Below are positions 29,762-61,776 of a stretch of 64,000 nt of DNA, one piece after another. The position numbers were made by a program, and so were the translations under genes. The first letter of the stretch is position 1. Every line of letters begins with the position of its first letter. This stretch comes from an uncultured Clostridia bacterium (GTDB lineage Bacteria; Bacillota; Clostridia; Oscillospirales; Acutalibacteraceae). The notes beneath the pieces are model-generated. The model did no database searches, was not told the DNA's origin, and worked only from the letters and a program-made list of their open reading frames with translations. The stretch covers positions 62,001 to 126,000 of the forward strand of contig CANQXE010000002.1 in the NCBI GenBank assembly GCA_947627725.1, given 5' to 3'.

Positions 29762-29790
29762 TTGACAAATCCATTTGTTCGTATTATTAT
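29762..29790 (+). promoter_or_regulatory. Sigma-A promoter of the T-box-controlled oxidoreductase operon
   Basis: Consensus TTGACA (29762-29767) and TATTAT (29785-29790) with 17-base spacing. It places the start of transcription at about 29797, giving a long leader of some 285 bases. Confidence 0.75.
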
Positions 29791-29796
29791 ATTTCT

Positions 29797-30062
29797 ACAT
29801 AATAGATAACACGTTGATGAGAACAGGTTTTATTTAATGAATTGTTTTAGAGAGCTGACGGATGCTGCAAGTCAGTACAAGGTTAGGTAAGATATCCTCT
29901 CTGAGTGGCTGTGCTGAACTATAGTAGGTGCAGACGGCTTCCTCCGTTACGGGATAGTGTATGATAGTACATAAAGTGCGTTTTTTATAAACGAAAAAGA
30001 GTGGTACCACGGTATTTATATCGCCTCTTTGCCCTAAAAGGCAGGGAGGCTTTTTATTTTTT
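29797..30062 (+). promoter_or_regulatory. T-box riboswitch (probably isoleucine-tRNA specific)
   Basis: tRNA-sensing leader. Stem I has the GATGAGAA region (29816-29823), the AGAGAG segment and the apical CTGACGGATGCTGCAAGTCAG. The later stem shows the conserved ACGG...CCGTTA (29933-29948). The antiterminator bulge contains GAGTGGTACCACGG (30000-30013), and the terminator GCCTCTTTGCC / GGCAGGGAGGC ends in TTTTTATTTTTT. By pairing GAGA (29819-29822) with TCTC (29898-29901) and TTTATTT with AGGTAAG, the specifier loop reads ATATCC, placing ATC (Ile) one base before the lower stem. The UGGU in the T-box requires a tRNA with discriminator A, which fits Ile and excludes an Asp reading. The specifier call is inference. 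Confidence 0.85.
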
Positions 30063-30082
30063 AGAGAAAGAGAGAGATTATT

Positions 30083-30655
30083 ATGGCAGATTTGGTAGAA
30101 ATCCGCTGGCACGGCCGCGGTGGTCAGGGAGCAAAGACTGCCGCGCTTTTGCTTGCGGACGTTGCTTTTAAGACAGGAAGCTTTGTGCAGGGCTTTCCGG
30201 AATACGGTCCGGAGCGTATGGGCGCTCCAATCACAGCGTATAACAGAATAAGCAAAAATGAAATCAGAGTTCATTCCAATATTTATGAGCCTGATTACGT
30301 TGTAGTTGTTGATGAGGGACTTCTTGATGTTGTAAACGTAACCGACGGTCTTAAGGAGTCCGGAGGTATAGTTGTCAACACATCAAAATCACCTGATGAG
30401 ATTAAGCAAAAGCTGGGAGATTATAAGGGCGGTGTTTACACAATCGACGCCCGCAAGGTGTCCGTTGCCTGCCTCGGAAAATATTTCCCAAACACACCGA
30501 TGCTTGCCGCTATTGTAAAAGTATCAGGTGTAATGGATAAGGAAACTTTCCTTAATGAAATGAAAATCTCATTTTCACATAAGTTTTCTTCAAAGCCGGA
30601 GGTTATTGACGGCAATATGAATGCTCTCAAGATGGCTTTTGATGAGGTTAAATAG
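30083..30655 (+). CDS. 2-oxoacid:ferredoxin oxidoreductase, gamma subunit
   Basis: Gamma subunit of a four-subunit, thiamine-diphosphate-dependent oxidoreductase that interconverts a 2-oxoacid plus CoA with an acyl-CoA, CO2 and reduced ferredoxin. The family signature EIRWHGRGGQGAKTAA is at the N-terminus, followed by QGFPEYGPERMGAPITAYNRIS. Length 190 is typical. First gene of a gamma-delta-alpha-beta operon with short gaps, preceded by the T-box leader. The family includes pyruvate (Por) and branched-chain ketoisovalerate (Vor) enzymes; substrate cannot be fixed by sequence alone. Confidence 0.9.
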   Translation: MADLVEIRWHGRGGQGAKTAALLLADVAFKTGSFVQGFPEYGPERMGAPITAYNRISKNEIRVHSNIYEPDYVVVVDEGLLDVVNVTDGLKESGGIVVNTSKSPDEIKQKLGDYKGGVYTIDARKVSVACLGKYFPNTPMLAAIVKVSGVMDKETFLNEMKISFSHKFSSKPEVIDGNMNALKMAFDEVK

Positions 30656-30670
30656 AGGAGGTACTGTAAT

Positions 30671-30973
30671 ATGAAGTCAGATACAAAAAAACTCCATTTA
30701 GAATGTAAATGGCAGGAGCTTACTCAGGGTATGCAGATTTACGGCGAGAAAACCTCCGAGGATTTCAACACAGGCGAGTGGACATCGGTTAAGCCTGAGC
30801 TTGACTGGTCAAAATGTATTCACTGTCTGATGTGCGTTCCTGTTTGCCCTGATAGCTGTATAGCTGTTAAGGACGGTATGAGAAAAGCGTTTGATTATGA
30901 CCATTGCAAGGGCTGCGGCATTTGTGTCAAGGCTTGCCATGTCGGCGCAATAACTATGGAGGGGGTTAAATAA
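30671..30973 (+). CDS. 2-oxoacid:ferredoxin oxidoreductase, delta subunit (2[4Fe-4S] ferredoxin)
   Basis: Ferredoxin-like subunit of 100 residues carrying two [4Fe-4S] clusters. The first motif is CIHCLMCVPVCP and the second CKGCGICVKACHVGAI. The preceding GEWTSVKPELDWSKC is characteristic of PorD/VorD. It relays electrons from the alpha/beta core to ferredoxin. The ribosome binding site AGGAGGT is at about 30657-30663, and the alpha gene starts 2 bases after its stop. Confidence 0.92.
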   Translation: MKSDTKKLHLECKWQELTQGMQIYGEKTSEDFNTGEWTSVKPELDWSKCIHCLMCVPVCPDSCIAVKDGMRKAFDYDHCKGCGICVKACHVGAITMEGVK

Positions 30974-30974
30974 T

Positions 30975-32156
30975 ATGGCAAAGAAAGACAGACTCAGCGG
31001 TAATGAGGCGGTTGCGGAGGCGCTCCGTCAGATTAATCCTGATGTAATGGCGGCGTTTCCGATTACGCCTTCAACCGAAATTCCGCAGTATTTTTCAAAG
31101 CTTGTTGCAAACGGTCAAGTGGACAGTGAATTTATTCCTGTTGAGTCCGAGCATTCCGCAATGTCTGCTGTTATCGGCGCGCAGGCGGCAGGCGCGAGAA
31201 GCGTTACTGCAACCTCCTCGGCAGGTATGGCGCTTATGTGGGAAGAACTTTATCTTGCGGCGTCAAACAGGCTTCCATGTGTATTAACTCTTGTAAACAG
31301 AGCCTTATCAGGTCCTATCAACATTAACTGTGACCACAGTGATTCAATGGGCGCGAGAGATGCCGGATGGATTCAGATTTACGCTGAGAACAATCAGGAG
31401 GTATATGATAATCTATGTATGGCATACCGCATTGCGGAGCATAAGGATGTTATGCTCCCGGTAATGATTTGCCAGGATGGTTTTATCACCTCGCACGCAG
31501 TTGAGAATATCATTCTCAATGAGGATGAGGAGGTTAAGAATTTTGTTGGCGAGTATGAGCCCGAAAATTCACTTTTAAATCCCGAGTGTCCTATGGCGGT
31601 AGGTCCTTACAGCGTAACAAATTATTACTTTGAGGCAAAGAGGGCGCAGGCTGAAGCTCTTAAGAACGCAAAGCAGGTAACTCTTGATGTCGCAAAGGAA
31701 TACGCGGAGCTTACGGGCAGAAAGTACGGGCTTTTTGAAGAATACAGAATGGATGACGCCGATTACGCAGTTGTTATCATAGGCTCGGCAGCAGGCACAA
31801 CAAAGGACGCTGTTGATAAGCTCAGAGAAAAGGGTGTTAAAGCGGGTCTTATAAAAATCAGACTTTTCCGTCCGTTCCCGGCTGAAGAAATAGCAGAGGC
31901 ACTAAAGGGTGTTAAAGCAGTTGCGCTTATGGACAGAACAGAATCCTATAACAATAACTGCGGACCTATCGGCGCGGAGGTCACTACTGCTCTTTACAGG
32001 GCAAAGTCCGACGCCCTCACAGTTAATTATGTTTACGGTCTCGGCGGACGTGATGTTAAGGTATCCGATATGATTAACATTTACAGCGAGCTTGAAAGTA
32101 TTGCCAAAGCAGGTAAAGTTGAAAATCCTTACCGCTATATGGGCGTTAGAGAATAA
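30975..32156 (+). CDS. 2-oxoacid:ferredoxin oxidoreductase, alpha subunit
   Basis: Pyrimidine-binding half of the thiamine-diphosphate enzyme, 393 residues. SGNEAVAEALRQINPDVMAAFPITPSTEIPQ and VESEHSAMSAVIGAQAAGAR (Glu that activates ThDP) are the core motifs; TATSSAGMALMWEELYLAAS and the later RLFRPFP and DRTESYNNNCGPIGAEV segments are typical of the PorA/VorA group. It works as a complex with the adjacent gamma, delta and beta subunits in the cytoplasm. The T-box upstream argues for a role in amino acid supply. Confidence 0.92.
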   Translation: MAKKDRLSGNEAVAEALRQINPDVMAAFPITPSTEIPQYFSKLVANGQVDSEFIPVESEHSAMSAVIGAQAAGARSVTATSSAGMALMWEELYLAASNRLPCVLTLVNRALSGPININCDHSDSMGARDAGWIQIYAENNQEVYDNLCMAYRIAEHKDVMLPVMICQDGFITSHAVENIILNEDEEVKNFVGEYEPENSLLNPECPMAVGPYSVTNYYFEAKRAQAEALKNAKQVTLDVAKEYAELTGRKYGLFEEYRMDDADYAVVIIGSAAGTTKDAVDKLREKGVKAGLIKIRLFRPFPAEEIAEALKGVKAVALMDRTESYNNNCGPIGAEVTTALYRAKSDALTVNYVYGLGGRDVKVSDMINIYSELESIAKAGKVENPYRYMGVRE

Positions 32157-32169
32157 GGAGGCGGTTTTT

Positions 32170-33111
32170 ATGTATAATTTTAAAGAATATGTCGGCAGAG
32201 AAGACCGCCTTGCAGGCGGGCACAGAATGTGTGCAGGCTGCGGCGGCACAATTGCAGTAAGGAATGTTTTAAAGGCAATAAAGCCGGGAGATAAGGCTGT
32301 AATCGGTAACGCAACAGGCTGTCTTGAGGTTTCAAGCTTTATGTATCCGTATACGGCGTACAAAGACAGCTATATACATAATGCGTTTGAAAATGCAGGC
32401 GCTACAATGTCCGGTGTTGAGGGCGCATATAATGTGCTTAAAAGAAAGGGCAAGCTTGACGAAACATATAAGTTCATCACCTTCGGTGGTGACGGCGGTA
32501 CTTATGACATCGGATTTCAGTCACTGAGCGGTGCTATGGAACGCGGTCACGATATGGTTTATGTGTGCTACGATAACGGAGCGTATATGAATACGGGTAT
32601 TCAGCGTTCGTCAGCGACTCCGATGTTTGCTGATACGACCACAACTCCTGTCGGCAGTCAGTCAACAGGCAAGCCGCAGTACAGAAAGGACCTTGCGGCA
32701 ATTATTGCAGAGCATCAGGTGCCTTATGTCGCACAGACTACATTTGTACAGAATTTCCGTGACCTTTACAGAAAGTCTGAAAAGGCTATTTATACAAAGG
32801 GTCCTGCTTTTCTTAACATTATGGCTCCTTGTCCGAGAGGCTGGAGATATCCCGCATATGATATTATGGAAATCTGCAAGCTTGCTGTTGAAACGCGTTA
32901 CTGGCCTTTATTTGAGGTTGTTGACGATAAGTGGATACTTAACTATGAGCCGAGAAATTATGTTCCTATTGAGGAGTGGCTTGTTAAGCAGGGCAGATTT
33001 AAGCATATGTTCAAGCCGGAAAATGAGTGGATGATTGAAGCGTTCCAAAAGGAAGTTGACAGACGCTGGTATGAGCTGCTTGACCGCTGCTCAGAAGTAC
33101 GAGGCGCTTAA
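32170..33111 (+). CDS. 2-oxoacid:ferredoxin oxidoreductase, beta subunit
   Basis: Diphosphate-binding half of the enzyme, about 313 residues. HRMCAGCGGTIAVRN supplies Fe-S/ThDP-site cysteines, NATGCLEV and the ThDP/Mg motif GGDGGTYDIGFQSLSGA follow, and CYDNGAYMNTGIQRSSATP is a strong family signature. FLNIMAPCPRGW closes the catalytic region. The start at 32170 follows AAGGAGG at 32156-32162; a longer in-frame reading from 32092 overlaps the alpha gene and is rejected. A terminator hairpin follows the stop. Confidence 0.93.
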   Translation: MYNFKEYVGREDRLAGGHRMCAGCGGTIAVRNVLKAIKPGDKAVIGNATGCLEVSSFMYPYTAYKDSYIHNAFENAGATMSGVEGAYNVLKRKGKLDETYKFITFGGDGGTYDIGFQSLSGAMERGHDMVYVCYDNGAYMNTGIQRSSATPMFADTTTTPVGSQSTGKPQYRKDLAAIIAEHQVPYVAQTTFVQNFRDLYRKSEKAIYTKGPAFLNIMAPCPRGWRYPAYDIMEICKLAVETRYWPLFEVVDDKWILNYEPRNYVPIEEWLVKQGRFKHMFKPENEWMIEAFQKEVDRRWYELLDRCSEVRGA

Positions 33112-61691: not shown

Positions 61692-61776
61692 GCGAGAGTG
61701 GCGGAATCGGCAGACGCGCACGTTTGAGGGGCGTGTGGGGCGACTCGTACGGGTTCAAGTCCCGTCTCTCGCACCA
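61692..61776 (+). tRNA. tRNA-Leu (anticodon GAG)
   Basis: Class II tRNA with acceptor arms GCGAGAG and CTCTCGC, encoded ACCA end, D-arm with GGCAGA, and anticodon stem CACGT/GCGTG around loop TTGAGGG (anticodon GAG, reading CUC/CUU). There is a long variable arm and a T-arm GGGTTCAAGTCCC. Confidence 0.96.

What the first reader, a model, noticed from the sequence alone, without database searches (positions are those of the whole stretch)
29762..33111. T-box riboswitch, apparently Ile-specific, in front of a 2-oxoacid:ferredoxin oxidoreductase operon
A complete T-box leader with its own consensus promoter and terminator precedes all four subunit genes (gamma, delta, alpha, beta). My folding puts ATC in the specifier loop, and the T-box bulge (UGGU) demands discriminator A, consistent with tRNA-Ile. 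A T-box switches genes on when the amino acid is short. That makes sense only if the enzyme works reductively, carboxylating 2-methylbutyryl-CoA (or isobutyryl-CoA) to the 2-oxoacid for Ile/Val synthesis. Ruminal cocci are known to make branched-chain amino acids from branched short-chain fatty acids by reductive carboxylation, so this would be a genetic control for that route.
Basis: partly seen in the sequence, partly recalled or inferred. Interest (0 to 1): 0.78.

Follow-up and report, generated by a model that had tools for sequence, protein, structure and literature searches.

The report
Isoleucine T-box before a carboxylase operon
A gut bacterium switches on a four-gene, ferredoxin-dependent CO2-adding enzyme through an RNA sensor that reads isoleucine shortage, which suggests that the enzyme makes isoleucine building blocks rather than burning them.

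Summary
A canonical T-box (RF00230, 130.7 bits) at 29805-30031 lies between a near-consensus promoter and a terminator, before the gamma-delta-alpha-beta genes of a 2-oxoacid:ferredoxin oxidoreductase (30083-33111). The specifier is AUC (Ile): the register that fits the eight other T-boxes of this genome gives AUC, which is invariant in 24 of 24 aligned leaders beside a covarying helix. Such T-boxes stand before the operon in 37 of 38 examinable genus loci and 5 of 37 more distant ones.

A late check added the strongest support. Eight of 60 genus genomes carry instead a VorB-type enzyme (a fragment in one) behind an MbcS-like acyl-CoA synthetase. All eight operons have a weaker T-box, again AUC; seven of the eight genomes lack ilvC and ilvD.

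Best reading: the enzyme runs reductively to supply an isoleucine precursor. The RNA is ordinary; its target looks undescribed in the papers I could search.

The parts
29762..29790 (+). sigma-70-like promoter, TTGACA-17-TATTAT
   Evidence: consensus match only
29805..30031 (+). T-box leader (Rfam RF00230, full length)
   Evidence: 130.7 bits, E 9.4e-29
29819..29822 (+). 5' strand (GAGA) of the helix below the specifier loop
   Evidence: pairs with 29898-29901; 3 of 4 pairs change on both sides, 100% of cells paired in 24 leaders
29894..29896 (+). specifier AUC (isoleucine)
   Evidence: invariant in 24 of 24 chosen leaders and read in 42 of 42 loci with the T-box core motif (41 by script; L090 by eye)
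29898..29901 (+). 3' strand (UCUC) of the helix below the specifier loop
30002..30005 (+). T-box bulge UGGU (would pair with ACCA, discriminator A)
30023..30060 (+). intrinsic terminator, 11-bp stem and T-run; CUCU at 30025-30028 lies in both terminator and antiterminator
   Evidence: 6 of 11 pairs with double changes in 24 leaders
30083..30655 (+). gamma subunit (PorC/KorC family, 190 aa)
   Evidence: TIGR02175 215.2 bits over cut-off; PF01558
30671..30973 (+). delta subunit, 4Fe-4S ferredoxin type (PorD/KorD family, 100 aa)
   Evidence: TIGR02179 86.7 bits over cut-off
30975..32156 (+). alpha subunit (393 aa), closest profile PorA_Arch
   Evidence: NF040682 498.9 bits, below its cut-off 550; PF01855 and PF17147
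32170..33111 (+). beta subunit, TPP-binding (313 aa), closest profile PorB
   Evidence: NF008819 336.1 bits, below its cut-off 405; PF02775

Best explanation
This is a transcriptional T-box that reads tRNA-Ile and controls a four-subunit 2-oxoacid:ferredoxin oxidoreductase. When Ile is short, uncharged tRNA-Ile pairs its anticodon with AUC in Stem I and its ACCA end with UGGU. The antiterminator forms and the gamma-delta-alpha-beta operon is transcribed; when tRNA-Ile is charged, the terminator forms. The anatomy, the specifier and the target operon are shown here. Response to tRNA is inferred from the family. The direction is inferred: the enzyme is made when Ile is scarce, so it most likely runs reductively (acyl-CoA + CO2 + reduced ferredoxin to a 2-oxoacid) to feed Ile synthesis, beside the ordinary ilvA-ilvBN-ilvC-ilvD genes that this genome also has. 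The substrate is open: 2-methylbutyryl-CoA to 3-methyl-2-oxopentanoate (about 0.42) or propionyl-CoA to 2-oxobutyrate (about 0.36).
For: T-box. Specifier: eight other T-boxes in the genome, read as codon + 1 nt + helix, fit their genes (aspS AAC, valS GUA, pheS UUC, proS CCU, leuA CUC, cysE-cysS UGC, trpE UGG, thrS ACC; genes named by eye from translations; for pheS the helix is extended by a G-U pair). The same rule gives AUC here, and TBDB gives that register priority (PMC7778990, passages). AUC invariant 24 of 24; helix covariation. Conservation: 19 of 20 genus loci by Rfam; 37 of 38 genus loci with upstream DNA and 5 of 37 distant ones in the named-genome scan, all AUC. A second, VorB-type oxidoreductase operon of the genus, never found together with this one in 60 genomes, has a T-box reading AUC in 8 of 8 loci (63.6-81.6 bits, below the gathering score, E 6.5e-12 or better). 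In 4 of the 20 sampled genus genomes without the intact or partial operon, none of 28 T-boxes has an Ile specifier. A separate single-chain POR_N protein of 1178 aa, PFOR-like by size and domain, can serve pyruvate oxidation. Ferredoxin-dependent Ile routes are recorded in anaerobes.
Against: No expression, binding or enzyme data. The genome already has ilvA, ilvBN, ilvC, ilvD, leuA and leuCD, so no gap has to be filled. 32 of 37 distant operons with upstream DNA lack a T-box, so the link to Ile is not a property of the whole enzyme clade. Single-strand folding of Stem I is no better than shuffles. Profiles name the alpha and beta subunits pyruvate synthase, below cut-off. The frame UCN (Ser) is also kept as an amino acid in all 24 leaders (UCC, UCA, UCG), one base too close to the helix.
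Confidence: 0.78

Rival explanations
1. One reading: the enzyme carboxylates 2-methylbutyryl-CoA (and perhaps isobutyryl-CoA) to the branched 2-oxoacids, salvaging branched short-chain fatty acids for Ile/Val.
For: Precedent in the same genus: the VorB-type operon, with an MbcS-like acyl-CoA synthetase, is behind an Ile T-box in 8 of 8 loci, and 7 of those 8 genomes lack ilvC and ilvD and all 8 lack ilvA (G026 has only a VorB fragment), so its product there can hardly be 2-oxobutyrate. The two operons exclude each other in 60 genomes, as interchangeable parts would. The route is recorded for anaerobes (PMC2812497, passages). Four of 38 operon-bearing genus genomes lack ilvC over cut-off (G030, G036, G079, G082). 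The alpha motif is NRALSGPININCDHSD in 78 of 81 sequences (two with NRTLSGPININCDH, one without the pattern), with Asn where 9bt4 has Trp and 5 single-chain proteins of relatives have Phe (pattern found in 5 of 9 loci tried), which could mean a roomier pocket (lead only).
Against: 34 of 38 operon-bearing genomes keep ilvC, and 36 have an ilvD match (two of them partial); three of the four without ilvC have ilvD, and they are drafts of 50 to 420 contigs. No butyrate kinase over cut-off in any of 60 genomes, and in the own genome no hit at 1e-20 to the VorB-linked synthetase, so a source of 2-methylbutyryl-CoA is not evident. VorB and this alpha are only about 31% identical.
Confidence: 0.42
2. 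2-Oxobutyrate synthase: propionyl-CoA + CO2 gives 2-oxobutyrate, bypassing threonine deaminase, and ilvBN-ilvC-ilvD and a transaminase finish isoleucine.
For: It explains why Ile is sensed and why ilvC and ilvD are kept (ilvC over cut-off in 40 of 41 distant operon-bearing genomes). Closest profiles and structures are pyruvate synthases. The route is recorded in anaerobes (PMC7476758, passages) and in the title of Monticello 1984 (reference lists). An acetate-kinase-like protein is present (416 aa, judged by size and low butyrate-kinase score).
Against: ilvA is kept in 35 of 38 operon-bearing genomes, so there is no clear replacement. No propionate-activating enzyme was tested directly. The sister Ile T-box operon (VorB type) works in genomes where 2-oxobutyrate would lead nowhere.
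Confidence: 0.36
3. Oxidative or unrelated role: a pyruvate or amino-acid-catabolic oxidoreductase whose T-box is a chance acquisition or a general starvation response.
For: Papers on BCAA catabolism name porA in Parabacteroides (search listing with abstract starts only). 32 of 37 distant relatives with upstream DNA lack the T-box.
Against: A catabolic enzyme switched on by shortage of one amino acid would worsen the shortage. AUC is kept across the genus, in distant relatives and on a second enzyme type. A separate PFOR-like protein exists.
Confidence: 0.1
4. The specifier is not Ile but Ser (UCN) or Tyr (UAU) read in a shifted frame.
For: UCN is Ser in all 24 leaders; UAU is present in 22 of 24.
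Against: UAU becomes CAU in L129 and L141 and in L152. The eight other T-boxes in the genome use the register that gives AUC. TBDB reports AUC as 0.99 of Ile and UAU as 0.01 of Tyr specifiers. UGGU asks for discriminator A, whereas tRNA-Ser usually has G (recalled).
Confidence: 0.04

Closest known systems
T-box riboswitch, transcriptional (Rfam RF00230)
   Same: Full-length match to the Rfam consensus: Stem I with specifier loop, later stems, UGGU T-box bulge, antiterminator/terminator exchange (motif names recalled, positions)
   Different: Nothing in the RNA; the controlled operon is unusual
Four-subunit pyruvate/2-ketoisovalerate:ferredoxin oxidoreductases (PorGDAB; PFOR of PDB 9bt4)
   Same: All four subunits in the order gamma-delta-alpha-beta; closest PDB chains are 9bt4 alpha and beta
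   Different: Below the cut-off of every equivalog shown; alpha motif carries Asn-Cys where 9bt4 has Trp-Asn; under an Ile T-box
VorB-type 3-methyl-2-oxobutanoate oxidoreductase with MbcS-like acyl-CoA synthetase (7 of 60 genus genomes plus a fragment in an eighth)
   Same: 2-oxoacid:ferredoxin oxidoreductase operon behind an Ile (AUC) T-box in the same genus
   Different: Alpha only about 31% identical; brings its own acid-activating enzyme; goes with loss of ilvC, ilvD and ilvA; its T-box scores below the gathering threshold
Isoleucine synthesis from propionate or 2-methylbutyrate by reductive carboxylation (C. sporogenes, rumen bacteria, M. ruminantium)
   Same: Predicted chemistry
   Different: No RNA control was mentioned in the passages and titles seen

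Membership tests
T-box riboswitch | Covariance-model score over the curated threshold, full length | tested here: met
   130.7 bits against 93, positions 1-219 of 219
T-box riboswitch | Specifier triplet in an internal loop of Stem I, in register with a covarying helix | tested here: met
   AUC invariant, helix with 3 of 4 pairs doubly changed
T-box riboswitch | Conserved UGGN bulge in an antiterminator, mutually exclusive with a terminator | tested here: met
   UGGU at 30002-30005 and terminator at 30023-30050 sharing CUCU
T-box riboswitch | Control of amino-acid-related genes matching the specifier | tested here: inconclusive
   The operon is plausibly Ile-biosynthetic and a second such operon has the same switch; no independent proof of its substrate
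T-box riboswitch | Antitermination by uncharged cognate tRNA | not testable with these tools
   needs transcription or binding assay
2-oxoacid:ferredoxin oxidoreductase, four-subunit POR/VOR type | gamma, delta (ferredoxin type), alpha (POR_N + PFOR_II) and beta (TPP) subunits | tested here: met
Pyruvate synthase (PorABCD equivalogs) | Score over the equivalog cut-off | tested here: not met
   PorA_Arch 498.9 against 550; PorB 336.1 against 405; PorC 192.1 against 270; PorD 81.8 against 120
VorB-type 3-methyl-2-oxobutanoate dehydrogenase | Score over the VorB cut-off | tested here: not met
   141.9 against 399 for the window's alpha; the other genus enzyme, from L160, meets it with 553.6
Branched-chain 2-oxoacid synthase used for BCAA synthesis | Activity with branched acyl-CoA in the reductive direction | not testable with these tools
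   needs enzyme assay or isotope labelling

The most novel reading that the evidence does not exclude
Gut Clostridia make isoleucine from short-chain fatty acids shed by their neighbours with ferredoxin-dependent carboxylases, and two distantly related enzyme types in one genus have each come under a tRNA-Ile switch: genes and genetic control for a route known mainly from biochemistry.
Probability: 0.5. Interest if true: 0.75.

Novelty: new member of a known kind. Interest (0 to 1): 0.62.

Why it matters
2-Oxoacid:ferredoxin oxidoreductases are reversible, and genomes rarely say which way they run. An Ile-specific T-box in front of the operon, repeated on a second enzyme type in the same genus, is a built-in statement of physiological direction. 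If right, it assigns genes to isoleucine synthesis by reductive carboxylation in uncultured gut bacteria, ties it to propionate or branched fatty acids in gut and rumen, and gives a simple reporter to test it.

Tried and rejected
That rested, which used the gathering score and stretches with too little DNA before the first gene. Fetching the upstream DNA and searching with a laxer threshold found T-boxes in 8 of 8; the claim is withdrawn.

Absence of ilvC as a discriminator between substrates for the window's operon: four operon-bearing genus genomes lack it, but they are drafts and three have ilvD, and 40 of 41 distant hosts have it, so it was set aside as inconclusive. Citramalate synthase as an Ile source: 0 of 60 over cut-off. 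The Fisher value (POR against Vor genomes for ilvC) is not used as a test, because related genomes are not independent. Script readings of specifiers mis-registered some leaders; L090 and several of the 28 were read by eye. Structure prediction was not used, since it would not settle the substrate.

Literature: searches found 0 papers; one search found 1, which on reading passages does not join T-box and PFOR; in the listings (20, 5 and 20 papers listed of 452, 5 and 25) I saw none that joins a T-box to this operon. Supplements could not be read, so TBDB or RegPrecise tables may list the pair without comment.
Full report
Observation. The window carries one T-box over the gathering score, at 29805-30031 (130.7 bits, full length). 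A near-consensus promoter precedes it and an 11-bp terminator with a T-run follows. Four ORFs follow on the same strand with small gaps: gamma 30083-30655, delta 30671-30973, alpha 30975-32156, beta 32170-33111 (beta start read at the ATG at 32170). NCBIfam and Pfam place all four in the POR/2-oxoacid:ferredoxin oxidoreductase family. The coordinates of the finding are right.

Specifier. In this genome nine T-boxes are found at E 0.001 or better, all over the gathering score. For the other eight I read the codon as the triplet that ends one base before the helix below the specifier loop: AAC before aspS, GUA before valS, UUC before pheS (with the helix extended by a G-U pair), CCU before proS, CUC before leuA, UGC before cysE-cysS, UGG before trpE, ACC before thrS. 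The genes were named by eye from the translations, not by a family search; that aspS often has an Asn T-box is recalled. Each codon fits its gene. The same rule gives AUC here. It is the register to which TBDB gives priority (PMC7778990, passages). In 24 chosen leaders (20 of the genus, own included, and 4 distant) AUC is invariant, while the base after it is C, A or G and the base before it is U in 22 and C in 2. The helix under it pairs in 100% of cells with compensatory changes in 3 of 4 pairs; the terminator helix has 6 of 11 such pairs. The lone-strand fold of Stem I shows the same unpaired AUCC but is not more stable than shuffles.

Distribution. One search covered 60 genomes: the own, 36 of the genus and 23 of other families. 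The own genome and 20 of the 36 have a full-length alpha at 85% identity or more, one more (G014) has a piece at a contig end, and none of the 23 has one at that level. Rfam finds the T-box in 19 of those 20 loci; the miss, L031, is a shortened locus, its contig ending about 580 bases before alpha by its length. In an even sample of 60 genomes of the genus, 38 have the full-length alpha and 2 a broken or partial one (tallied). One (L107) lacks upstream DNA; of the other 38, 37 carry the T-box core motif by pattern and one (L092) does not, by pattern or by Rfam. Of 41 more distant loci (68-76%), 37 have at least 1.27 kb upstream; 5 have a T-box (L124, L129, L143 over the gathering score; L152 and L141 just below it at 92.2 and 90.8 bits) and 32 show neither the core motif nor an Rfam match before the operon. 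All 42 T-boxes in this set read AUC (41 by script; L090 by eye). The G-handle set and the named set overlap in species and must not be added.

Phylogeny. On a tree of 46 of the 81 alpha subunits (41 distant, 5 of the genus) the T-box rows lie in two places: the genus clade (100/99) and, far from it, inside a clade of 11 rows (100/100) in which 5 have the T-box, 5 lack it and 1 is unknown. The label needs 3 changes, of which starred branches force 2. That is two or more gains, or an old gain with several losses. Either way both groups read AUC.

A second oxidoreductase under the same switch. Seven of the 60 genus genomes have, instead of this enzyme, a VorB-type alpha (about 31% identical), and an eighth (G026) a fragment of one; no genome has both types. 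Where the locus was laid out (L158, L159, L160) the VorB-type genes stand behind a helix-turn-helix/cupin/AMP-binding acyl-CoA synthetase whose best NCBIfam match is MbcS, below cut-off (L160 copy); the synthetase occurs in all eight genomes. Upstream of it, in 8 of 8, Rfam finds a T-box at 63.6-81.6 bits (below the gathering 93; E 6.5e-12 or better). The triplet one base before the helix (GAAG/CUUC) is AUC in 8 of 8, and the synthetase starts 61-90 bases after the T-box match. Six of the 7 VorB genomes lack ilvC and ilvD and all 7 lack ilvA, and G026 lacks all three; some are incomplete drafts (G020 68%, G071 77%, G026 83%, G012 87%), and related genomes are not independent. There the product can hardly be 2-oxobutyrate, so an Ile switch on branched-acid carboxylation is the natural reading.

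Other Ile T-boxes. In 4 nearly complete genus genomes with neither enzyme (4 of 20 without the window's operon), 28 T-boxes at E 0.001 or better (22 over the gathering score) show no Ile specifier (some read by eye). As far as these show, Ile T-boxes in the genus belong to the two oxidoreductase operons.

Function of the window's enzyme. The own genome has a separate single-chain POR_N protein of 1178 aa, so this is a second enzyme. It also has ilvA and ilvC, ilvD, ilvBN and leuCD and leuA (by eye); ilvE and leuB were not tested. No citramalate synthase passes the cut-off in any of 60 genomes. The operon is therefore an extra, conditional route. Because it should be expressed when tRNA-Ile is uncharged, the net flux that makes sense is towards isoleucine.

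Which precursor. Two routes are on record. PMC7476758 (passages) names ferredoxin-dependent propionate carboxylation to 2-ketobutyrate in several anaerobes; PMC2812497 (passages) infers the 2-methylbutyrate route in M. ruminantium; [quoted passage not shown] For propionate: the enzyme scores nearer to pyruvate synthases than to VorA or VorB models; ilvC stays in 34 and an ilvD match (two of them partial) in 36 of 38 operon-bearing genomes; the own genome has no hit at 1e-20 to the VorB-linked synthetase and no butyrate kinase over cut-off. For 2-methylbutyrate: the VorB-type precedent and mutual exclusion just described, 4 of 38 operon-bearing genomes without ilvC, and an alpha motif without the aromatic residue of 9bt4 and of the 5 single-chain proteins in which the pattern was found (9 loci tried, own genome's not among the 5). 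Neither is decisive; I now put the branched acid slightly ahead. CoA transferases and other activating enzymes were not tested.

Novelty. The RNA is an ordinary T-box. Its use on ferredoxin-dependent 2-oxoacid synthases was not met in the listings, nor in the passages read of PMC2494555, PMC7778990, PMC5171806, PMC3766115 and PMC9026213. Supplementary tables were not available, so a silent database entry is possible.

Noticed in passing
L202-L209 (upstream of the VorB-type operons, e.g. L202 2195-2431): T-boxes with AUC before an acyl-CoA synthetase/VorB-type oxidoreductase operon in 8 of 8 genus genomes; scored below the Rfam gathering threshold, so a default scan misses them.
   Followed up: partly
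L158 478-706 and 710-4656 (G031): A T-box with a Leu specifier (CUC) precedes a short LeuA-like protein and an 841-aa fusion of a xylose-isomerase-like TIM barrel with an AMP-binding domain; proteins of 844-853 aa matching in the AMP-binding part occur in five other genus genomes (G001, G003, G016, G026, G060).
   Followed up: partly
L092 2600-3120: A genus member in which no T-box is found before the operon; other DNA stands there and what looks like the 3' arm of the terminator is left before the gamma gene.
   Followed up: partly
L164 1877-5273 (G065): The operon is broken (alpha in several pieces) while the T-box is still recognisable (102.5 bits) with a mismatch in the helix under the specifier.
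   Followed up: partly
L197 and L198 (G005, G028): T-box-like leaders (about 77 bits, below threshold) reading CUC before a protein that looks like a CstA-type transporter (by eye).
   Followed up: no
window 61692-61773: A tRNA gene, not part of the finding.
   Followed up: no
L122 7650-7919 (-): A further T-box near the operon in a Lachnospira MAG, on the other strand and not before the operon; target not examined.
   Followed up: no
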